Shown: positions 2,342 to 18,700 of the stretch, piece after piece | How positions within the stretch are numbered: position 1 is the first letter of the stretch | Layout of the letters: each line of letters begins with the position of its first letter | Source of the DNA: Acanthamoeba sp. SK_2022b | Lineage: Eukaryota; Discosea; Longamoebia; Acanthamoebidae | Reading direction: 5' to 3' | Assembly (NCBI GenBank): GCA_027943245.1 | Contig: JANDJZ010000173.1 | Location: 1-64,000 of the forward strand | Length of the DNA stretch: 64,000 bases | The notes under the pieces: generated by a model | What the model was told of the DNA's origin: nothing | Database searches by the model: none | The model's input: the letters and a program-made list of their open reading frames with translations, nothing else | Position numbers and translations under genes: made by a program

Positions 2342-2977
2342 GGAAAGAAGAAGTTGTGTACAACAATCACGAAAGTGCTTGGCGTGATGAAACAAGTAAA
2401 AAAGGTCATTAACGCCCGTTGCCACAATCCTTCAATATCTCCTCCATTTTTCAGGGTGGACGGTCGCATAACAAACCACGCAATTTACAGTGCAAAGATA
2501 TGTTTTTTTATACAACGCGACTGTGTCGTCGCTAGGGGGGTCGGCCGTAACGGCATGTAGTCCCAGCAGAGAGTAGGTTAGGGGTCGGGTGTCTCCTCTA
2601 AAAGTTGAAATATATATATATTGCAATTTCAAAATTCTCAAAATTCAAAACTGCCAACTGCCAACTGCGTAATTGGCGACGAACTCCGCTCTGAAAACTC
2701 CATACAGGTCTTGATCTATTTTTGATCCATCCGCGCTGCGTGCCGGCGTGCCAGTTAGGGAGGTGTACTAAAGCGTTGTCCACCAACGCACGGTGCACTG
2801 CTCCCGTGCAGCATTCTAGGCGCGTCTTCACTCTCCCGTGCAGGCTGCAACGTGTGGCCACAGAATAGCTGAGCTTCAAAAGTAAGTCGACCACCACCAT
2901 TGGAGAATGCGCCCACATAGGCGCAACCTCCCGACAACCTTGCCACTCTCCTCAACCTACCAAGAGCCAAGCAAGCC
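2342..2977. other. Intergenic region, no gene seen
   Basis: This 636-base spacer lies between two plus-strand genes. It holds the RidA-like 3' flank, a short TA run near 2611-2620 and repeated AATTCAAAA-like words at 2627-2650. No conserved reading frame or RNA gene is recognisable. Confidence 0.55.
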
Positions 2978-5900
2978 ATGTCCGGCTCCCGTACCAGCCG
3001 CCGCAGTCTAGCTCTTCTGATCGCAGCTCTCGCGGTTGTGTCGTTCTTCTCATCATGCGAAGCCAACGTGCGCGGCTCTGGACCTCTGAACTCGGGCCTT
3101 CTCTTTGCAAAGCTGGGCGAAGTCTACACATACGCGAGGGACTCGGTGCGGGTTGACTTCGAGGCGAGCAGCGTTCCACAGGCCTTGACCGACTACAAGG
3201 ATGGGCTCATCGACTTCTTCATCTCCGACGTACCGCTGAACGGAGACGACCTGGACCCCTTCGACGGCATACAGATTCCGATGATGGGAACCCCCCTCGT
3301 CATGGCCTACAACCTCGAGCCCTACCTGGCGGCCAACGAGACTGTGGTAATGGACGGCAACACATTGGCGATGATCTGGCTAGGGACCATAGTAACGTGG
3401 GACGACCCTGCCATCAAGGCCTTCAACCCGACCTTTGCTCACAAGCTGCCTAACCTCAATATCACCCTGAGCTACTGGGGGCCGTCCAAGAACGCTCTGG
3501 GCTTCACCGCCGTCTTTAAGGAGGCCCTCAAGGTCTTCAACGACACGATGCGCCAGGAACTGCTGAACAATGGCAACGAGCTCGAAGAGTTGCCTCCCAT
3601 GCGCGAAGGTCGCGGAGTGACCGGACCGCCGTATGAAGTGGGCCAGTGGCGCATCGACTACGTCAAGAACAACCCCGGCTGCATGGGCTACATGGAGCGC
3701 AACGCCGCGGACGAGATCAGCCTGGCCTACATCCATATGATTAACAAGGCTGGCAACGTGGTCGAGGGCAGTCCCGCGTCAGTACAAGCGGCCATGGACG
3801 ACCACCGCGACCAAATTCACTCGGGTCAGCTAGTCTTCGAGATCCTCGACGCCCCGGGCCCGGACTCGTGGCCCATGAGCTTTGTCAGCTATATCACGCT
3901 TTCGCGCACCCGCACCGGCAGGAGCGAGCTCGACTGCTCGCGCGTGCAGGAGCTGCTCCTCTTCCTCAGCTGGGTCGAGACTAACGATGGCGTCGACAAA
4001 CTGTTCGAGTCGGTGGCTTTTGCCCCGCTCACCAATCCCTACAAGAGGAGGCTCATCGACGAGATGTACAAGATCAACTGCGACGGCAAGCCGGCCCTAT
4101 CCACGCCCGTGCTCATAGGTATGGGCGAGCCGTTTTTCGTGTTCACCTCGTGGGCCGAAGCCTTCACCTCGACCAGCTTCAGCATGAAGTACGTCCACTC
4201 GACGGCCAGCGCAACCAAACAGGAGCTGCTGTTCAGGGACATCGACTACGGCGTGGCCAGCTCCCAACTCTCGTCCACTCAGCAGGCTCAGGTTCCTGAC
4301 GCCCAGGGCATGACCGCCATCGCCTACGCCATCGTGCCGGCCTACAACATCCCCGAGCTAGCCTCGATCAACCTCGTGCTCGACCTCGAGGTAGTGGCGG
4401 GCATTTACCTCAACACCATCGTACGCTGGGACGACTCGCGAATTCAGCAGCTCAATCCGGGAGTCGCCCTGCCCAATTCCACGATCGTTCCCGTGCTCGA
4501 GTGCGGCGGCTCGTCCGACATACGGGCTGTCTTCACCCAAGCGTTGGCTTCCGTACCGGCCTTTGCCGCGGCTGTGCAAGCTGGTCCGGACGCCGTGCTG
4601 CCTGTCGCGGCAGACAACCGCACCCTGTGTTCGGGGGCCACTCCGAGCACGCTCAGCAACACGCCCTACTCGTTCGCTATGTGGCCTTCACCTCAGCTGT
4701 TCATCGATGCCCGCGACGTCAAGCAGGCGATGATGATCAACTCGGCTCAGGAGGCGGTTCACGCTACCCAAGCATCGGTATTGGCCGCTGTGGCTTCGGA
4801 CGCCGGCCATGCTAGCGATCCCTACGGAGCTCTCGTCCTCAGCCCTGGTGCGGAGAGCTGGCCTATTGCAGCCTACCAGCGCGTCTTTGTCTACACGCGC
4901 GACATGAGCGACTGTTCCAAGGCGAAAGCACTGGCCGACTGGATCTACTGGAGCCAGACTGCCCCGGAGGCCACCTCTCTGGCCAGCACCTATGCCGTCG
5001 TCGTGGCCAGCGCCTCATCGGAGCAGCTGAAGAGGCGTATGTTGCTGTTTGTAAATGACATCATCTGCGACGGGCAGCACGTGAGCCAAGTCCACGGCTG
5101 CGTCACGCCCGACGGCTTGCTCTGCTCGGACCACGGAACCTGCTCTGCGACCCGTACTTGCGTCTGCGAGGCCGGGTGGACCGGCGATCTCTGCGAGACT
5201 GCGACCTCAAGCGGCTCCTCGGACGACGCCGTGGTGGCCATCGCGCTCGGAGTTGCGTTGCCGGTGGGCGCGTTCGTACTGTGTCTCGTCCTGGCCACGA
5301 TCGTGATGGCCCTCCTGCTGGTCCGCAAGAAGGAGCACGGCAGCCTGAACGAATTCACGATAGACTTCGAGGAGCTCGAGGTGGGCGAACAGTTGGGCCA
5401 GGGCGGCTTCGGCGCGGTGCACAAGGCCACATGGAAGGGAACAGAAGTGGCGGTCAAGGTCATGAATCCCGACGCTATCACCAAGGAGGCCACCAGGAGC
5501 TTCACGGACGAGGTCGAGATCATGTCCCGCCTCCGACATCCCAACGTTGTTTTGTTCATGGCCGCCTCCGTAAAGCCGCCGCGGCTCTGCATCGTCATGG
5601 AGCACATGGCGCTGGGCTCGCTCTACGATGTACGTGAGCAGTGACCTTTGTTTTTCGTCCTTACCCAACCTGGAACTTACCCCACGTGGCCATTACGATA
5701 TGTGGCTGTTGCAGCTGCTACATAACGAGCTCATTCCCGAGCTGCCGCTGTTACTCAAGGTCAAGATAGCTCACCAGGCGGCCAAGGGCATGCACTTCCT
5801 ACACTCGTCCGAGATCGTCCATCGTGACCTCAAGTCGCTCAACCTGCTGCTCGACTCCAAGTGGAACGTCAAGGTGGCCGACTTTGGGCTCACCAAGTTC

Positions 5901-7883
5901 AAGGACTCGTACAAGGCCGTCCGCAAGGAGCGCGTGCCGATGGGCACTGTGCCTTGGATGGCCCCCGAAGTCCTGAGCGACCAGGTCGACGTGGACCACG
6001 TCCTAGCCGACGTGTACTCTTTCGGCATTGTGTTATGGGAGCTGCTGACGCGCGACGTCCTCTACGACGGTCTGCAGCCGGCTCAGATTGCGGTGGCTGT
6101 CATACGAAACGACCTGCGGCCACCTGTGCCCAAAGGTCTGCGGGATGGCGAGCTCGAATACGTGGGCCTCATGCAGCGCTGTTGGGATCGCGATCCGACG
6201 TCGCGTCCCACCTTCGACGCCATCATAACGAGCCTGGAGAGCATCAAGAAGGAGGTGGGTGGCGGCACGGGCACCAGCGCCTTCTCGTCAAGCAGCGGCA
6301 CGAGCAGCAGTGGCCTGGGTCGGGGCCATGCGGTCGGGTCTAGCGACTATGCGTCAACCTCCTCGGGCGGGCATACCCAGTTCGACGACTACCGCCGGGG
6401 GATTCCCAGACGCGATGTCTCCTTTGTAGTGTGCGATCTGGCCGGCATGGACGTGGTGTGGGTGCAGAACCCTTCGGAGGCCGATTACACGATCGAGACC
6501 TACGGACTCCTCGTGCGCCAGCTCTGCTTCTCCCATAAGGGCTACCTGTTCTCCCGAGCCCACCTGCATAGCGGAGGCACCTATATGCTGGCCTTTGCCC
6601 GACCGGCGCAGGCCGCTTCGTTTGCGCTGGCGCTGCTGTCCACGAGCGCGACCACTGCCGAGCTGCGAAGGATCGTCGAGCTGTCCCGAGTGTCGCTACA
6701 CTACCGCCATGGTACGAGCCTGAGCCTTCCCGACGACCACACTGCCACCACGTACGAGCCCACGAGCTACAGCGAAGCCTGCCGGCTCAACGTGCTCTGC
6801 CCACCCGGAGCCGCGCTCTGTTCGGCCGCCTTCGCCAGCACCTGTGCCACGGCCAGCCTGGCCGAAGGAGTGTGGCTGGCGAGAGAGAAGGAGGACGGGC
6901 CTTCACTCTTAGTGCCAAGCCAGATGGCTCAGGAGGACAAGGAGGACCTCGTGCTCCAGCTAGAGCAAGACGAGAAGCCGCGTCCAGGCAAAGGTCTTTG
7001 TTCCTCCAATGCGTGCTCGTGGATCATCGACGGCGCCAGGCTGCGCGTAGGAGAGCGCATAGGCGAAGGCAGCTTCGGCCAGGTGTCCGAGGGCGAGTAC
7101 CTCGGGATGCGGGTGGCCGTTAAGCGGCTGTTTGCCTCCCGTCTGGACGACCAGGGCATGCGCCGCATGCGTAGAGAGGCTGCCGTGCTGTCCTCCATCT
7201 CTCACCCCAACATAGTTCAGCTCATCGGCCTTTCCATCGCTGACGGCAACCTTATGCTGGTCATGGAGCTCGTCTCGCGCGGTAGCCTGCGAGATCTCCT
7301 GTCAAGTCCGGCGAAGCTCGGCTGGGAGGAACGTCTGTCCATGCTCCGCGGCGCTGCCGTGGGCCTCGAGTTCCTGCACTCCAAGGGCATTCTGCATCGC
7401 GACATCAAGAGCTCCAACCTGCTGGTTGATGATCAGCGCAACATTAAGGTCGGCGACTTTGGCTTCGCGACGATCAAGCACGAGAACGCCACCATGACCC
7501 GATGTGGGACTCCCGCCTGGACAGCTCCCGAAGTGCTCCTCCCTGCGCAGAGGCCGGTCGACACCGGCGGCTCCGACCAGCAACAAGATAGAGCCGACGA
7601 CGAAGAGGGCGATCGGCAGGACTACAAGGCTGACGTGTACTCGTTCGGCATCGTGATGTGGGAGGTGCTCACGCGTAAGCTGCCGTACGAGGGCGACGGC
7701 TGTGGCATGGCCGACATGGTGCGGGACGTGCTAGACGGCAAGCGCCCGCCGGTGCCAGCTGACTGTCCGCCGGCCTATCGCCGGCTCATGAAGCTGTGCT
7801 GGCACCGCAAGCCTGCCAAGCGGCCGACAATGGATCACGTTCTGATACTGCTCAACCAGATGTGCGCCGACCTGCCTGTCTAA
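2978..7883 (+). CDS. Receptor protein: two PstS-like ectodomains, EGF, TM, TKL kinase, cyclase-like domain, TKL kinase
   Basis: Two exons (2978-5629, 5715-7883) encode 1606 residues. A signal peptide (about 1-29) is followed by two tandem periplasmic-phosphate-binding (PstS)-like domains (about 30-370 and 388-700, each with an L-N-T-I-V-x-W-D-D-type motif), an EGF-like module (about 707-742), and a membrane helix (about 749-777). Kinase 1 (about 797-1062) has GQGGFGAVHKA, AVKV, HRDLKSLNLLL and DFGLTKF. A class III cyclase-like domain (about 1116-1276) and kinase 2 (about 1326-1606; GEGSFGQV, HRDIKSSNLLV, DFGFATI) follow. Both kinases keep Lys, HRD and DFG residues, so both look catalytically competent; they are of the tyrosine-kinase-like group. 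The cyclase domain keeps the first Asp region (VVCDLAG) but the second metal site reads HSGGTYMLAF where an Asp is expected, so it is probably inactive. Such receptors are a large expanded family in Acanthamoeba; the ligand is unknown. Confidence 0.9.
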
Positions 7884-8150: not shown

Positions 8151-9451
8151 ATGGGCAAGAGGAGGAGGGTCCTTACGGTCAACCAAAAGAGCTTCGCCAC
8201 CTATGTCTACAAGGTGCTCAAGCAGGTGCACCCCGACACGGGCATCTCGCAAAAGGCCATGGCCGTCATGAACTCCTTCGTGCACGACATGGCCAATCGC
8301 GTGCAAACCGTGCGTTGCCTCAATCTTTTTTCAATCGATTCTTTGTGCAATCTCTTCCCCAGTCTTTGTGTCTCTCTTACAGGAAGCAGCCTCCCTGGCG
8401 GAAATCGGCACCAAGAAATCACTCACCAGCAGAGAGATTCAAACGGCTGTGCGCCTCACACTTCCTGGTGAACTTGCTAAGGTAAGGGGGGAGGTAGCCT
8501 CCTTGTATCAAATGGTTGAGAACCTGACACGCCCTCTTTCCGTTCTTCTCATCCAGCACGCCGTGTCGGAGGGCACCAAGGCCGTCACCAAGTTCCTCCA
8601 GGTGGCCGGGGGCGAAGGCAAGCGCAGCTTGTCCTACCGTGCGGGGTAGCTTCAGCCAATGCCAGCGAACCGGGAAGCCGCGCACTGACACCCAACCCCC
8701 CTCCCCTTTTTTTCTCCCTCTACCCGGTGTGCAACAGGTTGCAGTTCCCGGTGGGCTTCTTTCACCGCTACCTCAAAGAGAAGACCAAGCTGAGAGTGGG
8801 CAAGGGTATATTCGCCCCGCGTAATTTAGTTGGCCAACTCCGCCCTTTCACAGCTTTATCTCCTTACTGCCCATCCTTCCTCCCCTTGGCGTGCTGGTAC
8901 ATGTATGGACACAGGTGCCCCAGTCTACCTCGGCGCTGTGCTCGGTATGTGCTCAGCGACTGTTGTGCGCAACGAGACTCGTGTCCATATGAATCCTTGT
9001 TTCTCACTTCTCTCTGCGTGGTTATGTATGTGTGTTGCTTCCCTCGGCGCAGAGTACCTGACGGCTGAGATTCTGGGTAAGGGGCCTACGAGGGCGCTCG
9101 CACCACATAATGCCCTGCGTTTTCTCTTTCTCCCACAATGACGCTTCTTCATACGTTCTTTTATGTGCAGAGCTGGCGGGCAACGCGGCGCGCGACAACA
9201 AGAAGGCGCGCATCATTCCGAGGCATATCGTGCTGGCCATCCGCAACGATGAGGAGCTCAACAAACTCCTGTTGCACGTCGTCATCCCGAGTATGACACT
9301 CCCCTTGCTCTCACCCGGTATTTTCTCACTTGTTCAATCTCTTATGTGTGCAGGCGGTGGGGTGATTCCGAACATCCACTCGGTCCTAATTCCCAAGGCC
9401 ACCAAGGCTTTTTTTACTGGGGACAGCGAGGAAGCCCAGCAGGTGTACTGA
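8151..9451 (+). CDS. Fused histone doublet H2B-H2A
   Basis: Eight exons (8151-8309, 8383-8481, 8557-8645, 8738-8805, 8915-8944, 9053-9076, 9171-9290, 9354-9451) keep frame throughout and give 228 residues. Residues about 10-100 are an H2B histone fold with [17 protein letters not shown] and the block running from SREIQTAV to [10 protein letters not shown] short linker, [13 protein letters not shown], leads straight into H2A ([79 protein letters not shown]). The H2A acidic-patch Glu/Asp residues and the H2B ones are present. N-tails are nearly absent. The junction intron (8646-8737) is needed: it removes an in-frame TAG at 8647, and splicing restores the RAG-LQFPVG sequence exactly as at the start of the H2A fold. 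The H2A half has no start codon of its own. Doublets of this order are known in Marseilleviridae; introns show this copy is a cellular gene. No histone 3' stem-loop is seen. Confidence 0.9.
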
Positions 9452-10007: not shown

Positions 10008-11805
10008 CTATGGTTGCTCCTGCTTCTGTTGCTTGTTGCTGAGGCTCTGCAGGACCCGCGTGGCGGCATGATGTCCAGGTCCCTTCCAGTTGCCCTTAAT
10101 GATGCCGTGCCAGTACATGGGCGGCAGCACGTCCTTCTTGAGGTAGTACATGCTCGCCCGCTCCTTGGACTGATCCACAGGGAACTGAAGAGGGAGATAG
10201 CAAGCGTTAGAGGAGCACTTGTGTTGTCTAGCGTCATCTTGGATGTGGTACTGTTTCACAAGGCTGCAACGAGTAGTCGAACTCGGCCAGCACCAGCTTG
10301 CCTGCCGACAGCAAAGAGGAAGGAGTAAGTGGTCAGTACACGATAAACTTGTGATTCGCGGAAGGAGAAAGGAGGAAGGGCAAGGCCAACCGTATCCGGT
10401 GACGAGGGGGCAGGACGTGTAACCAGAGTAGCTCTCGGGGAGCGTGGCGTTGGGGTCACGAATGACAGCCAGCAGGTTGGCCGTGGCCACGGCCGCCTGC
10501 GAGCTCACGGCCGCTGCGGTCTTGGACGTGGGCAGGTTCGAGGCGTCACCAAGACCAAACACGTTGGCGTACTTCTTGTGGCTGCAGTGGAAGTTTGTGG
10601 TCAGAGACCAATGCAATGGTGATTTGCAGGAGAGAGAACCAACCGGAGGGTGTGCTTGTCGACATCGACCCAACCGCCAGCGTCGGCAAGGGGGCTCTCC
10701 TTCACGAAGTTGGGCGGGCCCATTGGGGGCGTCACATGCATGAAGTCGTACGGCACCGTCTGACCGAGCGGCCGATCGATTATAGGAGTCAGCTTCAACT
10801 CGGAGCTAACGCGGGAGCGATGCATCCACACATAGGTGCAGGGGCCACGCACCATTAGCTCCTGTGTGTTGAGATCCTTGAAGACGGCCTCGTGGTTGTC
10901 GCCCCTTACCTCGACGAGGTCATGCTTGAAGTGGGTGTGAATGCCCCGCTCCTGACAGATCTGGAGTTCGCGTGATTCCATACCAACAAGCGTCAGTTGA
11001 AGAGGGGGAGGGTGACTGGGAATGACACATGTGACGTGGATAGTACCTTGGTGAGCACTTTGCCGTAGTAGGGGGAGGCAAAGATGGCGGGTCCGCCGGT
11101 GTAGAAAGAGATATCAACATCGACACCTCGCTTCCTCCAGTGATCCTCGGCAAGGTACATGACCTGTGCGTATGGGGGAGGAAGATGCAGGGGTGGATGC
11201 AAAATGAGAACCACATGCGGGAACAAGTGGAAATAGATTGAAGAGCGGAGGACGCACCTTCTGTGGGGCACCACCGCACTTGATAGGAGTTGCGGGATGA
11301 GTGAAGACCGCCTTGCCTCCGTTGAAGTGCTTGATAAGGTCCTGGAGAGATGGGTGACCAACAGTGTTGAAGTAGCAACGGTGAGCAGACGCTCCAGAGA
11401 TCATCTTAACACGTTACCAGCCAAGCATCGCACCCAGGTCTTGTCGGCGTACTCATAGCTGTAGTTGGAGGACACGCCTTTCTTGCCCAGGGCGTCGCGT
11501 AGACCCTTGACCTATTTGTTTAAGTTGCACGCGTTGTTTGTGCGCAACGGCTCGTCAGCTCACAGAGCAAGGGGAACAGCAAAAAGAAAAGCTAGTGTAT
11601 CGGCGTACGTTGTCCCAGTTGATCTGGATGCCGGGACAGACCACCAGATACTTGTAGTGCACCGTCTGACCATCGCTGGTTACCACGGCGTTCTCCTCAG
11701 GCATGAACTTCGTCACCGCAGACTTGATCCACTTGGCTCCCTTGGGGATAAGGTCCGCCTCGTCCCTGCCCATTTCACGAGAATAGTGGAGGCGTTATTC
11801 TTGTA

Positions 11806-11847
<42 letters not shown>

Positions 11848-12198
11848 TCTGACAGACTAGAGAAAATAATGTCCGTACCGCTCGGTGTCGCGTTTGTTAA
11901 AGATGCCACCACCTACCATAGTCCAGCCGGGCTGGTAGTAGTGCTTGGTGGAGGGCTCAACTATGGCTACGTCGAGGTCCTTCATGGCGCGGCGCAGCTG
12001 ATGGCTCACCGACAGACCAGCAGTGCCGCCGCCAATCACCACGACGTCGTGCTTGACCGACGACAGCGACGCCTGCGAATGAGCTGCCCGGCGCAGTACC
12101 AACGCCACGCGGAGCCTGCCATTTCGAGGTGCCGCCTTGGCGACCACCGGCAGCGAACTAGAATCGTGCAAGACGTTTAGAGTCATTCGCTGCCGCAT
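10008..12198 (-). CDS. Mitochondrial sulfide:quinone oxidoreductase
   Basis: Nine exons on the minus strand (12198-11879, 11765-11609, 11511-11434, 11341-11258, 11163-11047, 10960-10644, 10581-10391, 10301-10252, 10184-10008), phase-consistent, 496 residues. An Arg-rich, acid-poor N-terminus of about 40 residues looks like a mitochondrial presequence. The FAD-binding glycine motif [13 protein letters not shown] follows. Both redox cysteines expected in eukaryotic-type SQR are visible: in [13 protein letters not shown] and in [20 protein letters not shown]. The C-terminus ([18 protein letters not shown], then MYWHGIIKG) matches the animal/fungal SQOR type. Known role: oxidises sulfide to a persulfide and passes electrons to ubiquinone on the inner membrane. 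The first intron contains an ATT trinucleotide repeat. Confidence 0.93.
11806..11847 (+). repeat. (ATT)n microsatellite in SQR intron 1
   Basis: About fourteen ATT units lie between the first and second exons of the minus-strand SQR gene. Confidence 0.95.
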
Positions 12199-15100
12199 TC
12201 AGCGAGGTGAGGTGCAGGTACCGTTGTGTGGGCCTAATCTTGTGCATGTGTTTTGGGGCAAGTGGCGTTTTTCGGTAAACTCACCTCTCTCTAGAACGAA
12301 ACGCCGACGCCACACGGAAAATGCGCACCTACGGCCGACCACTCACAGTGCAAAGATAATTAGCAAAATCACGGACATTCCGCAACGTTGGGAGGTTGGG
12401 ACAGGTTTTGGCCCTTGTTTTAATGCAAACAGAAAGTCCAGAAAAAAGTAACAATTAGGAACTTGTCTGGTGATGAGCCAGTTGCACTGGATCTTGAGTT
12501 TGTTCAGCAGTTGAGAGCTTGATATGTTGCTGCCATTGAGCATGAAGGTCTGCAGCAGCAGGCAAATGTGCTGGCAAGGGCCATCATGCAAAATCTAGAC
12601 AGGCAGAACATTGGCCAAGCCTTGAGTTTCAGTTTCAAGGGAGCTTAACAAAGGTAAAGTATGAGTATGTGCTGCAACAAAGCAGAGTAAGAGGAACAGA
12701 GGTGAATGTAATTTAAAGGCTGCAAACAATTGCAAGATGAAGTTCGCTCTATCCTAAAACAAGGCAAATAAGTTGACAAGAAATATCTTTCTCTTGTGTG
12801 GGTGAAGGGAAGGGTACACATGAACCTTAAATTGTTGATGTGTCCACAGCACAAGGGAACTTGAACCTTGCAAAAGGAGAATTGGAATAAAATAAAAGAC
12901 TCAGAAGAAGGTAGTGCAAAACTGAGGAAAATGAGACAGTGACTCTTTTTCTGTAGAGAGCACCTGTCTGGGAAGGTGTCCTAAAGGTCTACAGCTGCAT
13001 GACTGCTGATGTCACTGTTGAAAACTGTAGACATTAGGGGCAGTGTCTCATTATACTGAACACTCAATTGCAAAGAGTGTTCCTGGCATCATGTGTACAT
13101 GTATGCAGTGAGAATAACTATGTCTGAGACCTGGTGAGCAGCTGTGTACCCTGGTAAGAGTAGATGATGATGGAAGTTGTACTATTGAGCAAAGTTGAGG
13201 TTGTGGAGGAGTGGTCTGTTGACTGGTGAAATTGCAATATCAATGCATCTCCAAAAAAGAGAAGGTGATTGACTGCATCTTTGATGATCAAAAATGGGTT
13301 TGGCTGGCTGGAGAGCAGACATGCTGAGGTGATTTCAATTGAGCTCAAAGAAGGCATCCTAGTTCCACCACTTTTCAGGGGAAGCCAGAGTTGTGTAGGC
13401 ATTGAAAAACTGGTAGCCTGCTCCCTCACATAGATTAGAAAATGAGAATAAAAGTGGTGGAGGGGCATGACTAGAGGAAAAAGAGGTGTCCATGAGGGGC
13501 TCCACTTCTTGATGGCGCTGTTTTTCTGTTGATGGAGAAGGTTCTCTTGCAGAAGGTGACAGTGCTCTTCCTCTGTTGGTGGTGAAAAAGATCTGCTCAA
13601 ATTGCAATTTGAGCAGATGACAGCACCAGATACACTCACAATTACTTGTGAGAGGTGTCATGCACAACACACTACTTTCCAACATGGAGATCCTTGGCGC
13701 TTCCCTCTTCCAGGGGTTCCTCAACTTTGCTGGCACCTGAAGTCGGAGTTAAAACAGAAACAAGTCAGCACAAACTGAAATTTAACCTGACTTTACATTT
13801 ACACAATGCAGCAGGCACTGCCTAGGCATTTTTGACTCTTCCATAATAAGAGCTTGTAACAGAGTGAACCCAAAGATGCATGTAGATGACCCAATAGAAA
13901 CCATACGTATTCTGCACATTCATGTGTCACTTTTTCACCATCTACCTTTTTCATCACAAACCAATAAGAGAAGTGTTGACCTGATGCGCATGAGTCCACC
14001 TCCCCAACCCACAGATGTACTTAAAAGGGCACCAATTCATCTCATGTAATTTAAAGATGGCAACCAGGTATTAGAAGAAATCGCTTGGTATATACAAGCC
14101 GTTGCATGTAAAAACAGGTATGTTGACACATAATCACTCACCATGTGCATTGGTACCAACCCTTAAAATATGTTTATGAAAACAGTTCTTCGAAGTTTTG
14201 TGTTTTTTACTCACCAAGACATAAATTTGCACCAAAGTACTGAAATGAAATTTTTGAATGTTTAGAAGAGATGTTCCAACAATGTAAACACAACTCATTA
14301 TGACTAATACATTTTGTCAAGTACAAATTTCGACACCGTTTCACCTCAGTGTACAGAATTTGAAGTTTTTTTTTTTTTTTTTTTTTGAGGCCTTGTACAT
14401 ATTTCAGTGTGTTTTTATTCCATATGTGTTTTCAAAGTGTACATTGCCAAAAGAGTGATCGTTACTTTTTTCTGAACGCTCTGTTCTTGGGAGTAAGAGT
14501 CTGCTTGAATTGGCAAGGGTGTGTTGTCACCCAGTGCCCATGTATGGGATTACAACATTAAGGCAATGCTGGTGAACAAGGTGCAAATCAAAGAGCATGT
14601 GCATGCTTCTGATGGTATTGCCAAAATGGCAACAAGATCATCCACAACACATGCCAATGGGGACGAAGGTGCATGAGCGTGTACACAACTTGCAATGGTA
14701 TTGCAAGCATATATGTCAAGAAGGAGCTACACCATCAGCATGGTCCATGCATACATGCAAGGATCTGTTGAGAAGGTGTGATGTACCTGACCATGCCATA
14801 ACTGGTTTGCCATGGTGCCTCTGAAAACCCACCACCAAATCTCAACGGAATTTTTGCAGCCTGGAAGTTCACAGATACATTCAACAGGACACTAATGAAA
14901 ATCCATTTTATTGCGCTCCCCTTCCAAAAATAGAGCAAACTTAAAATTACCATTGATACTTGGCAAAGCAGGTTAATTCGCCAGATAGCACTGCATTATT
15001 GGTCATTTGGTAATAGAGGAGGTTTGATGGGCATCAAGTGTGTATCAAAATAAAGAACAAAAATGTATAATCAATCTATTTTTGCGAAATGCAGCAGAGG

Positions 15101-15751
15101 AAGCAAGATCCACAAGCACCACTCATCATCCTCTTCCTCTAATTCTCTCTCCTACACCACTAGTGATGTTGTTATTGCAGAACAAGGTCAGTTGTACATG
15201 TCCATCACCTGAACACAGTGATGAGCATTTGGTGATGACGCATTCTTGCCAATTCTAGCTTTACATGTGATCACTATCTAGGCTCATAAACAGCCTTTGG
15301 CATGACTACATCCTGCTCACATATATGTTGCTTGTATAGCCAGGCTTACCTTATTTATACCTGGCTCTGCCTGTATATTTGTAAGTCCATCAACCTCTTC
15401 AGTGATGATGCTACCTGACATGCAAAATCACTGCTTTTCTACACTCAATCTCCAACATCTGTGCAGCAGCCCCCAACTGGCCACCAGCCATGTACCAAAT
15501 CACTACACTGCACAGAAGCCGGATGATGGAATGACTTCCTTACTCTTGCCAAGCAAAGGCACTACCAACCTGGTGTTGGTACATAAGTTTAACATAATGG
15601 TCACAGCTCAATCTCCTGACAGCTGGTGTACAAGCCAATTGTTGAATCATTGGCTTCTTCCTGCTCCCCCACCTGCAAAAGTCTGATGATTAAAATTCAG
15701 CACCTGCCAAGGAAATGGTTGGGAAAAAAGAGACAATTTCACCCACTGGAG
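12199..15751. other. Gene-free, CpG-depleted, AT-richer island between divergent genes
   Basis: Apart from about 200 bases of ordinary 5' flank at the left, this 3.3-kb segment (about 12420-15745) differs sharply from everything else in the window. By eye it has only about two dozen CpG dinucleotides, whereas single 60-base lines in the flanks often have five or more, and TG/CA words are in excess. No reading frame has recognisable family motifs, including those at 13118-13639 and 15402-15686. It contains a 21-base T run (14366-14386) and no detectable terminal repeats. The pattern is what 5-methylcytosine deamination produces in old silenced DNA. The edges fall between the SQR promoter and the ATG of the TPR gene. 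Its origin (transposon relic, viral insertion or other) is not readable. Confidence 0.75.
14366..14386 (+). repeat. T21 homopolymer (A21 on the minus strand)
   Basis: Twenty-one consecutive T residues inside the CpG-poor island. It could be the poly(A) remnant of a minus-strand retroposed sequence or simple slippage; no flanking target duplication was recognised. Confidence 0.9.
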
Positions 15752-18700
15752 ATGGACCATGGAGGTGCAGGCCGTGGTGGCACACACGAATCTTTGTTTG
15801 ATTCTATGGCCTCCGCTCTTGAGCAGGCTCTGCGCGAGATCGAGGAAGAAGAGATGGTGGGGCGGGCGTCAACTCGGCCATTCCCATTTGCACCATCTGA
15901 TCCCTCTGGCAATCTGTTTGTCCCTTCCTCCTCTCCCGCGAACCAGCCGGCGCCTTCCACGCCTTCCTCAAATGAAGCCCAGGAATCGTCTCTACAAGAA
16001 GATATAATCGCTGAGGCCCTGAAAGAAGTGCTCGAGCTCGGGCCAGACACCGTGAGTCATACCTCACATGCTGAGGTGCGTGCTGCACCTGTGCTACTCC
16101 GAATCCAACGACGTCCTCACCCACTATCACGTTATAGAGCACGGGTCCAGGTTTTGACCGAGCCTTCTTTATGTCAGTGCTCGAGGGTCTTGAAGGGGTA
16201 GACGTCACCTCTTCGCCCGTTGTGGTATTCCCCCAGCACCCAGCACTCTATTCTGAGTATGCCTGCCAATTTGTCTTCACCTGCATCCCTGCTGTGCCAG
16301 AACGCCCTCAACCAGCTGCAGGCCGAGCACTCGCCGGGCAGCTCACAATCGTTCCTCAAGCAGTCGCTTAGCATTGTGGGTACCCTGCCGGCCATTGGAG
16401 GACTGAGCGATGACGACGATAATCCCGACGAGGATTATGATGACATGCCAGCCCTGCTCAGCGACAACTCAAGCGAAGACGACCTCTACGGTGAGCAGCA
16501 GCCCAGCACGACAAGAGCGGAGCAACCAGAACACAACTACATGCCGCCGCTACTTGATTACTCGAGCGATGGTAACGAGGTGCCTCCCGGCCTCCTGGCC
16601 GACGACAACAGCTACGATAGCGAGCTCAATGAGGACGAGGAGGAAGAGGAAGATGATGAGTTGTGTATGTTCCACCAGGAGCTGCTGGCCAACAACCCCT
16701 TCAGCGCATTCTTTCTCTCGGGCGCCAACGCCAGCACTTCCTCTCCGTTTGCTCCGTCTCGACGAGGACCGCAGGCTACCCTACCCGCCCTCCACTCTGA
16801 CTCTGACCGAGACTACGAAACGGGGTCCAGCGAGAGCGAGGACGACGCGGAGCGAACTACCGGCAGAGCGTCGGCTGGCGCCGCCTCGCCTCCGAGTTCC
16901 ACATCACCGAGGCCGCACCCCGGCGGCCCTGCAGCCGCGACTTACTCTTCGGCACAGAGCACAGACATGAATTTGAGCAGAGAGGCTGCAACTACGCCGA
17001 TGGCAGCTAACCCAAAGCAGCAGCAAGTGGATGGCGCTGTGGCCGATGACGAGCACGAGCACGACCACGACCACGACGAACCAGCAGGGGATGTGCTGGA
17101 CTTCAACAACCTGGCGCAGTACCCGCTCGAAGAACTGGAGCAATTCTGTGAGCGCAAGGGCATATTGCTCAGAAAGCGAGGGCGACACAAGGGCAAGCAG
17201 CGGCTGGTGGAGGAGGGCACACCCGAAGGTGATCGATGGAAGGAGAAGCTGATCGCCAGCATCCAACGGTGCCGCCAGGAAGAGGAGGAGGAGGAGGAGG
17301 AGGACGACGACGACGAGCTGAACGACTACGAGGCCGAGCATGTGCCTCCCGAGGATATGTCAGCCGAGGACTGCAAGGCGCGCGCCAACACCTTATTGAC
17401 CGGTGCCTCTCTTCTCTCAACTGCACTTGGGGTGTGGTTGTTGGTAAGATGAACACTCACCCAAGCGCTCGGCGTTGCTTGTGAGGCAAGAGGGGCTGTA
17501 CGAAGCCGCGGTGCGATACTACACCAAGGCCATCAAGATCGCGGTCAAGGAAAGCCGAGAGAAGGGCTCGGAGAGCGAAGAAGAGCGGGGCCACAAGGCC
17601 GTCTACTTTGCCAATCGGGCGCTGGCCCACCTCAGGTGCGAGGCGCCCTCGGCCGCATTTTTCTCATATAAGCCAACGTATTGCGGGGGGGGGGGCAGGT
17701 GGGGCAACTACGCCAGCGCCGTGAGTGATTCGACGCGCGCAACTGAGCTCGACCCATTCTACCCCAAGGTATCGCCCACCTGATCCTGTTCTTAACTCTT
17801 TGGATGGTCGTCGACTCATCTCGTCAACTAACTCCGCTCGCGACAGGGCTACTATCGGCGGGGCGCGGCCCTTATGGAACTCAACCAGCACCGGAAAGCG
17901 CTGGCCGACTTCAGGAAGGTGCTATCCCTGCAGCCAGGCGACAAAGACGCGCTGCGACAGTCGCGCAAGTGCGAACAGATCATTCGCTCACAGGCATTCC
18001 AAGCACCCGCTCCCTCGTCGAGTACGGCGCCTGCCACCCGCGCCACCCAGAGCCCTTGGTCGTTATGGCTTACGAAACGCTGCTGGACGCTCAGGTGCAA
18101 GCAAGCCGGCGGCAGCACTGAAGGAGTCGCCGGGAGAGACCAAGACGGGATGGTCGGCTCCCTACTGGTCGGCCATGCACATGCCCAAGTTGCACGAGAT
18201 GGCTGCCCGTACGCTGGCCATCGAGATCGGAAACCAGATGGAGCTATACGTCGAGAGCCTCATGACGGGTGCTTGTCTCATGCGCGCAATATCCGCACAT
18301 GCGCAGCTACACATTTATAACGGAAGCATTACCACATCTTGTTTGATGCAGTGCCGGCCGACTACATGAAGCAGATCATGGCCCACATGTCGTGGTCAGC
18401 CTTCCAGAGGCTCCGAAGGATTCCTCACTTTGCGAACCTCATGTCGAACACCGCCAAGTACGGTTTCCTCAAGCAGGAGGAGGACTACTACCGCACCCTA
18501 TTCGTGCAGCAGAGGGACCACCCAATCCTCAGGTAACGGCTCCCTGTCGGCCTCGTCGCTACCAATCGCCAACCTTGTTTGCTGCTGCTGCTTTGAATCT
18601 AAACGGCATGCGGGTCGGTAGTGATCCCTCCTTGATGCTGGTCTCGCCCCACGAAGACATCTCACTCTTTGACTTTGAGGACCTCGAAGATGAAGAGGTA

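What the first reader, a model, noticed from the sequence alone, without database searches (positions are those of the whole stretch)
8151..9451. Intron-rich cellular gene encoding a fused H2B-H2A histone doublet
One reading frame runs through eight exons from a complete H2B fold into a complete H2A fold with a linker of about a dozen residues. The junction splice removes an in-frame TAG and recreates the RAG-LQFPVG sequence of canonical H2A exactly. Core residues, including both parts of the nucleosome acidic patch, are kept, while both N-tails are almost absent and Phe replaces an H2A L1-region Arg. Histone doublets in this order are established for Marseilleviridae, which infect Acanthamoeba. 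A spliceosomal-intron version in the host could be an ancestral donor, a domesticated viral gene or an independent fusion. A tail-poor covalent H2A-H2B dimer would make unusual nucleosomes.
Basis: partly seen in the sequence, partly recalled or inferred. Interest (0 to 1): 0.95.

Follow-up and report, generated by a model that had tools for sequence, protein, structure and literature searches.

The report
Natural fused H2B-H2A histone in amoebae
An amoeba chromosome carries genes in which two core histones that are normally separate proteins, H2B and H2A, are joined in one chain, an arrangement that published reviews say has not been confirmed or observed in eukaryotes.

Summary
Window 8151-9451 encodes an eight-exon gene with seven GT-AG introns for a 228-aa H2B-linker-H2A protein. 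It is not a merged gene model: the H2A half has no ATG of its own, and the genome holds two further H2B-H2A loci. C499 runs from H2B into H2A inside one exon and its five modelled introns match five of the window gene's seven; C429 shares the joint intron. Uninterrupted relatives occur in Balamuthia, Pelomyxa and a Vannella transcriptome and in environmental sequences. In a combined tree 32 doublets form one clade (98/94) apart from the few singlets sampled, with Balamuthia beside the window gene (100/90). Viral doublets are at most 40% identical to the Balamuthia protein, so recent viral origin is unlikely. The predicted structure matches engineered single-chain H2B-H2A. Most likely it is a covalent H2A-H2B dimer variant built into nucleosomes with host H3-H4; that is inferred. 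Published work calls eukaryotic histone fusions unconfirmed or unobserved. RNA, protein and function here are untested.

The parts
8151..8309 (+). exon 1: short N-terminus and first part of the H2B fold; ATG at 8151 is the first after in-frame stops upstream
8310..8382 (+). intron 1, phase 0, GT-AG; same aligned codon and phase as an intron of C499
8383..8481 (+). exon 2 (99 bases): rest of H2B a2, L2, a3; same length as exon 2 of C499
8482..8556 (+). intron 2, phase 0, GT-AG; shared with C499
8557..8645 (+). exon 3: H2B aC helix (to 8595, ...AVTKF) and the linker [16 protein letters not shown]
8646..8737 (+). joint intron, phase 2, GT-AG, holds the in-frame TAG (8647-8649); same position and phase in C429, absent in C499
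8738..8805 (+). exon 4: start of the H2A fold, [22 protein letters not shown]
8806..8914 (+). intron 4, phase 1, GT-AG; shared with C499
8915..8944 (+). exon 5, microexon of 30 bases, (G)APVYLGAVL; same length in C499
8945..9052 (+). intron 5, phase 1, GT-AG; position shared with C499 (there GC-AG)
9053..9076 (+). exon 6, microexon of 24 bases, EYLTAEIL; same length in C499
9077..9170 (+). intron 6, phase 1, GT-AG; shared with C499
9171..9290 (+). exon 7: H2A a2 end, L2, a3 and acidic-patch DEE
9291..9353 (+). intron 7, phase 1, GT-AG; no counterpart in the C499 or C429 models
9354..9451 (+). exon 8: H2A docking domain and C-terminus ...AQQVY, stop TGA
2921..7880 (+). upstream neighbour (two overlapping open frames): PBP-like, EGF-like and kinase matches; argues for an ordinary cellular locus

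Best explanation
A nuclear gene of an amoeba (probably Acanthamoeba; no call names the species) encodes a natural H2B-H2A histone doublet, one of an overlooked family of eukaryotic doublets. Shown by sequence: fused reading frame, shared introns, relatives, kept core. Inferred: the chain folds on itself into one H2A-H2B-type dimer, is carried by ordinary H2A-H2B chaperones and enters nucleosomes with host H3-H4, so H2A and H2B enter and leave as a unit. With short or absent tails, a shortened H2A loop L1 and a lost H2B Tyr83 (a contact to H4, recalled), such nucleosomes should be tail-poor and more easily exchanged, while the kept acidic patch and H2B Lys120 still allow remodellers and ubiquitylation. 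Intron-bearing genes beside canonical H2A and H2B genes in single open frames suggest a replacement-type variant made outside S phase.
For: Gene model. Three doublet loci in the genome. C499 reads from H2B into H2A without intron or stop at the joint; its five modelled introns match in aligned codon and phase; C429 shares the joint intron. Canonical H2B (2 loci), H2A ending SQEY (3) and H2A.Z (1) are single open frames. Fused relatives: P0005 79% over 88%, Balamuthia P0020 67% over 92%; Pelomyxa P0197, Vannella P0237 (MMETSP0168 transcript) and EukProt transcripts P0209, P0210, P0217, P0233 of unnamed species. Concatenated tree: 32 doublets in one clade 98/94; Balamuthia+(window gene, P0005) 100/90. 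H2B Tyr83 lost in 31 of 32 of that clade, kept in 6 of 6 singlet H2Bs sampled. Model of the Balamuthia doublet: pLDDT 88.2, pTM 0.83; best PDB matches are engineered single-chain H2B-H2A, 7wlp TM 0.95 to the target, rmsd 1.0, 65% identity.
Against: No RNA or protein evidence from this organism. Trees rest on about 200 columns and six singlet pairs; the H2B half alone does not reject grouping with the own singlet (AU p = 0.083), and window gene+P0005+Balamuthia with the own singlets is not rejected (p = 0.17). C499 is awkward: its H2B half is nearer the own singlet (62%) than the window gene (49%), falls with the singlets in the H2B tree and keeps Tyr83, as do 9 of the other 18 non-reversed doublets outside the clade; it has net charge -1 and 5 of 6 H2A acidic-patch positions changed. 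The C499 and C429 models were guided by homology, each needs one GC-AG intron and their 3' ends are unsure, so one or both may be decaying. Nothing here shows chaperone use or chromatin incorporation.
Confidence: 0.8

Rival explanations
1. Two neighbouring histone genes wrongly spliced together by the reader, as in vertebrate predicted fusions.
For: Talbert et al. report such mis-annotations in animals (passages). In the hit lists seven vertebrate or nematode hits carry an intact H2A start in the joint: P0001, P0124, P0148, P0165, P0168, P0172, P0176.
Against: The H2A half here has no ATG and no canonical H2A tail; the joint of C499 is inside one exon; the microbial relatives carry short joints without an H2A start (where 50 of 185 hits have H2B before H2A within 150 residues). 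Introns are shared with paralogues.
Confidence: 0.04
2. Gene taken from a giant virus with doublets (Marseilleviridae-like) and later filled with introns.
For: Same order H2B-H2A and short tails as viral doublets; giant viruses infect Acanthamoeba.
Against: Best viral doublet is 40% identical, Marseillevirus 35% and Melbournevirus 36%, to the Balamuthia doublet, whereas the halves of the window gene are 63-71% identical to canonical eukaryotic H2B and H2A. Two IMG/VR scans found no relative, but a third scan for a conserved H2A motif gave only a chance hit, so those scans had no working positive control. Viral rows were not in my trees, and some environmental doublets could be viral: Irwin and Richards saw histone repeats in ocean metatranscriptomes (passage).
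Confidence: 0.06
3. Several independent fusions of host H2B with H2A or H2A.Z in different lineages, kept because pairing is enforced.
For: H2A.Z-like doublets (C429, P0207, Pelomyxa, P0163, P0233 and others) group with H2A.Z singlets on the H2A half (17 rows, 96); some environmental doublets and C499 have singlet-like H2B halves; reversed H2A-H2B doublets P0211 and P0251 exist.
Against: The 32-member H2A-type clade and the lost Tyr83 point to one origin for that set; the H2A-type window gene and the H2A.Z-like C429 share the joint intron; holding their H2B halves plus P0005 and P0207 together even gave a better tree than the free search.
Confidence: 0.35
4. A chromatin-like but non-nucleosomal protein, such as the tandem histone fold of Son of Sevenless, or a decaying gene.
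For: SOS (1q9c) is a known eukaryotic double histone fold and appears among fold matches at 22-24% identity; C499 has lost most of the acidic patch and the basic charge.
Against: The window protein keeps 8 of 8 acidic-patch positions, the docking domain, H2B Lys120 and pI 10.0; 79% identity to an environmental relative argues against decay.
Confidence: 0.1

Closest known systems
H2B-H2A doublets of Nucleocytoviricota (Marseillevirus, Melbournevirus, Clandestinovirus, LCPAC304)
   Same: Same order, one chain, reduced tails; Melbournevirus 7n8n is the closest natural doublet among the 50 PDB matches listed
   Different: Viral genes, at most 40% identical to the Balamuthia doublet; marseilleviruses lack spliceosomal introns (passage)
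Engineered single-chain H2B-H2A chimeras (7wlp, 8yjm, 6w4l, 6k00, 4m6b and others)
   Same: Same order; tight structural match to the Balamuthia model, 55-65% identity
   Different: Man-made constructs from separate genes
Canonical eukaryotic H2A.X and H2B singlets
   Same: Both histone folds and docking domain; doublet C-termini end in SQ-x-hydrophobic in 10 of 32 and in an aromatic residue in 31 of 32 clade members
   Different: Separate genes; in this genome single open frames with long tails; the 6 singlet H2Bs sampled keep Tyr83
H2A.Z
   Same: C429 and P0207 have H2A.Z-like a2-to-docking sequence
   Different: Fused behind H2B
Son of Sevenless tandem histone fold (1q9c)
   Same: Two histone folds in one eukaryotic chain
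   Different: Only 22-24% identity to the Balamuthia doublet; a signalling protein (recalled)

Membership tests
Nucleocytoviricota histone doublets | H2B fold followed by H2A fold in one chain | tested here: met
Nucleocytoviricota histone doublets | Sequence closer to viral doublets than to eukaryotic histones | tested here: not met
   Halves 63-71% identical to canonical eukaryotic H2B and H2A; viral best 40%, measured on the Balamuthia relative
Nucleocytoviricota histone doublets | Carried by a viral genome | tested here: not met
   Seven spliceosomal introns, kinase gene next door, genome with canonical histone singlets
Eukaryotic core histones H2A and H2B | Histone folds and H2A docking domain above Pfam cut-offs | tested here: met
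Eukaryotic core histones H2A and H2B | Separate polypeptides | tested here: not met
   gene model; RNA not available
Eukaryotic core histones H2A and H2B | Nucleosome acidic patch | tested here: met
   8 of 8 positions checked
Eukaryotic core histones H2A and H2B | Incorporation into nucleosomes | not testable with these tools
   needs reconstitution or chromatin fractionation
H2A.X variant | C-terminal SQ-[E/D]-aromatic | tested here: not met
   window gene ends AQQVY; an SQ-x-hydrophobic end is seen in 10 of 32 clade members
Eukaryotic H2B-H2A doublet clade defined here | Groups with the Balamuthia doublet to the exclusion of singlets | tested here: met
   100/90 and 98/94 in the best tree; forcing the own singlets into window gene+P0005+Balamuthia is not rejected, p = 0.17

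The most novel reading that the evidence does not exclude
An overlooked, ancient class of eukaryotic core-histone variants: covalent H2B-H2A and H2B-H2A.Z dimers, spread through amoebozoans and further eukaryotic microbes, whose fused state goes back at least to early amoebozoan evolution and may be continuous with the fused histones from which viral doublets come. They would build tail-poor nucleosomes in which H2A and H2B are exchanged only as a unit.
Probability: 0.35. Interest if true: 0.97.

Novelty: new variant of a known kind. Interest (0 to 1): 0.9.

Why it matters
Histone doublets are used to argue how the nucleosome arose. [quoted passage not shown] Talbert et al. (PMC9145170, passages) say none has been confirmed but do not exclude some; a 2024 review (PMC10919886, passages) says current eukaryotes as a rule lack fused histones. 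A living eukaryote with such genes removes that premise, shows that a short-tailed fused H2B-H2A gene can coexist with ordinary histone genes, and gives an amoeba system in which the cost and use of fusion can be tested directly. It is also a natural counterpart of the single-chain H2B-H2A that structural biologists build.

Tried and rejected
Gene merging or mis-splicing: rejected, see rivals. Recent fusion private to this species: AU p = 0.015 against the window gene grouping with its own singlets on both halves, p = 0.083 on the H2B half alone. Recent viral origin: disfavoured by identity. Viral-contig scans matched 68 and 65 stretches, none a relative; a third scan with an H2A motif gave one chance hit (frames unrelated), so the three scans say little. 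H4-H3 doublets: PF15511 gave three H4-type matches over cut-off, open frames 145-177 aa; I did not model them, so absence is not shown. Other PF00125 loci (for example C831) and weak hits C439 and C709 (E 0.28 and 0.59) were not modelled. Environmental P0125 and P0126 look like assembly chimeras (a canonical-looking H2B joined to the linker and H2A half of the P0025/P0034 type and of P0011) and were left out; short environmental contigs can hide more of these, P0199 perhaps among them.

Rows dropped: of the doublets fetched, P0125, P0126, P0132, P0134, P0145, P0147, P0152, P0154, P0182, P0196, P0198 and P0201 were not put in the trees; P0007 (incomplete H2B half) is in the H2A tree only; C499 was left out of the concatenated tree because of its long branch (10 changes per column in the H2A tree). 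The concatenated tree holds 52 doublets (2 of them reversed) and 6 singlet pairs. Hit lists show only the best 120 of 7980, 7984 and 7981 scored candidates, and the candidates were themselves capped.

Not in print: in the papers held, the searches listed none that I recognised, from titles and abstract starts, as reporting a eukaryotic H2B-H2A doublet; some listings were cut (40 of 60, 20 of 807). Subscription papers and preprints are not held, Grau-Bove 2022 could not be read, and of the seven papers opened I saw passages only.

Full report
Observation. Reading the region and splicing it gives a 687-base frame in eight exons: 228 aa, 25.1 kDa, pI 10.0. Every intron is GT-AG. The order is a short N-terminus, the H2B fold, a 16-residue linker ([16 protein letters not shown]), the H2A fold and a docking domain, ending AQQVY. 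The joint intron at 8646-8737 takes out an in-frame TAG and restores RAG-LQFPVG. GC3 of the spliced frame is 0.80, against 0.42-0.61 GC in the introns. Pfam recognises two histone folds and the H2A C-terminus in the spliced protein.

The same genome. G000 has 44.9 Mb in 1129 contigs and the window is contig C299. A search with the spliced protein recovered the canonical singlets and two more loci in which H2B-like and H2A-like exons follow each other: C429 (7688-8711) and C499 (from 28936). Gene models, guided by homology, show that C499 has no intron at the joint: one 190-base exon runs from the H2B aC helix through an acidic linker into LAFPVG. Its five modelled introns fall at the same aligned codons and phases as five of the seven of the window gene, and its exons 2, 4 and 5 have exactly the 99, 30 and 24 bases of the matching window exons. 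C429 has seven modelled introns; one, the joint intron in the Gly codon of RAG, is shared with the window gene. C429's H2A half is H2A.Z-like from the end of the a2 helix on. In C429 and C499 one intron each needs a GC donor, and their 3' ends are uncertain. C499 has lost five of six H2A acidic-patch residues and has a net charge of -1, and its H2B half is nearer the own singlet (62%) than the window gene (49%); it may be decaying, partly converted by a singlet, or doing something else. The canonical H2B (two loci), H2A ending SQEY (three) and H2A.Z (one) are single open frames.

Relatives. The protein search gave environmental doublets at 79% (P0005, P0007) and 64-70% identity, and a Balamuthia mandrillaris protein named 'Histone H2B type 1-A' (P0020, 218 aa) that is in fact a doublet. 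A profile search and a search with the C429 type added many more, among them Pelomyxa schiedti P0197 (on a 19.4-kb contig, with an H2A.Z-like half), a Vannella transcript P0237 (MMETSP0168; taxid 95228 is Vannella, Amoebozoa), four EukProt transcripts of unnamed species and one further MMETSP transcript, P0163. Identities fall off among named amoebae: half by half Balamuthia is 65 and 70% identical to the window gene, Vannella 61 and 61%, Pelomyxa 61 and 57%. P0207 is 58% identical to the C429 core over its whole length, so both types have environmental counterparts. Classifying 185 hits showed 50 with H2B before H2A within 150 residues; the vertebrate and nematode ones mostly carry an H2A start or H2A tail in the joint, the microbial ones mostly a short joint without it.

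Trees. With H2B and H2A halves joined (58 rows, 202 columns), 32 H2A-type doublets form one clade (bootstrap 98, SH-aLRT 94) that excludes the six singlet pairs sampled; inside it Balamuthia is sister to the window gene plus P0005 (100/90). H2A.Z-type doublets group with H2A.Z singlets in the H2A tree (17 rows, 96) and lie near them, weakly supported, in the joined tree. Holding the window gene with its own singlets is rejected (AU p = 0.015), but holding window gene, P0005 and Balamuthia with the own singlets is not (p = 0.17), and the H2B half alone does not reject the first either (p = 0.083). So the fusion is older than the split from Balamuthia by shared architecture and best tree, while a single origin for all doublets is favoured, not proved. 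The singlet sample is small (own genome twice, zebrafish, a nematode, and human and yeast H2B paired with H2A.Z) and viral doublets are absent from it.

Structure and residues. AlphaFold2 on the Balamuthia doublet, with 33 database relatives as alignment, gave pLDDT 88.2 and pTM 0.83. The best PDB matches are engineered single-chain H2B-H2A, for example 7wlp (rmsd 1.0, 65% identity); the best natural doublet listed is Melbournevirus 7n8n at 36%. In the viral library the best doublet is 40% identical. The window protein keeps all eight acidic-patch residues checked and H2B Lys116 and Lys120, but changes H2A Arg29 to Phe and is one residue shorter around loop L1. H2B Tyr83, which packs against H4 in the nucleosome (recalled), is lost in 31 of 32 clade members and kept in 6 of 6 singlets; outside the clade, among 19 non-reversed doublets, 10 keep it (C499 among them), 7 lack it and 2 have a gap there. 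In the clade 31 of 32 end in an aromatic residue and 10 of 32 in SQ-x-hydrophobic, which suggests an H2A.X-like parent.

Mechanism. Shown: the fused frame, shared introns, relatives, kept fold. Inferred: the short linker lets the chain fold into one H2A-H2B-like dimer, as in the engineered chains; standard chaperones should accept it, since single-chain H2B-H2A of other species is solved with NAP1, Chz1 and SPT16 (names and titles); the dimer enters nucleosomes with host H3-H4, and with the Tyr83 contact and most of the tails gone the particles should be more labile and poorer in tail marks. Intron-rich genes beside canonical genes in single open frames fit a replacement-type variant. The cell-biological occasion, such as cyst chromatin or damage repair, is unknown.

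Literature. Talbert et al. [quoted passage not shown] In a Balamuthia transcriptome paper (PMC8569187) the terms H2A and H2B do not occur in the main text. No paper that I saw listed reports eukaryotic H2B-H2A doublets. Preprints and most subscription papers were out of reach.

Limits. No RNA, peptide or functional data exist here. Environmental rows are of unknown host and some may be viral or chimeric.

Noticed in passing
G000:C429:7554-8759 (L033, L040): H2B doublet whose H2A half is H2A.Z-like (RITPRH, RGDEELD, VVPHIHKS); an environmental relative P0207 is 58% identical over its length. A natural H2B-H2A.Z doublet.
   Followed up: partly
G000:C499:28936-29778 and beyond (L019, L041): Divergent doublet with a continuous H2B-to-H2A exon, acidic linker, mostly lost H2A acidic patch and net negative charge; decaying or specialised.
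   Followed up: partly
Proteins P0006, P0073, P0131, P0132, P0134, P0152, P0158: Environmental doublets with long N-terminal extensions of about 100 residues that look like SAP-type repeats (by eye, no domain search run).
   Followed up: no
Proteins P0227, P0217, P0135, P0143, P0154: P0227 carries a ubiquitin domain (PF00240) before the doublet and P0217 an HMG box (PF00505) after it, by the precomputed domains; P0135, P0143, P0154 and P0227 have FG-rich stretches (by eye).
   Followed up: no
Proteins P0211, P0251: Reversed doublets, H2A before H2B, in environmental or unnamed contigs; they group together in the concatenated tree (98/93).
   Followed up: partly
G000:C617:21657-23865: Two canonical H2B frames flanking a reverse-strand match to PF15511 (H4-type); the H2B genes are single open frames.
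   Followed up: no
window 2921-7880: Receptor-like gene next door with PBP-like and EGF-like domains and kinase matches in both of its two overlapping frames.
   Followed up: partly
window 12001-16000: Stretch of low GC (0.43-0.46) in a window otherwise at 0.53-0.63; a TTA repeat lies just before it at 11795-11847.
   Followed up: no
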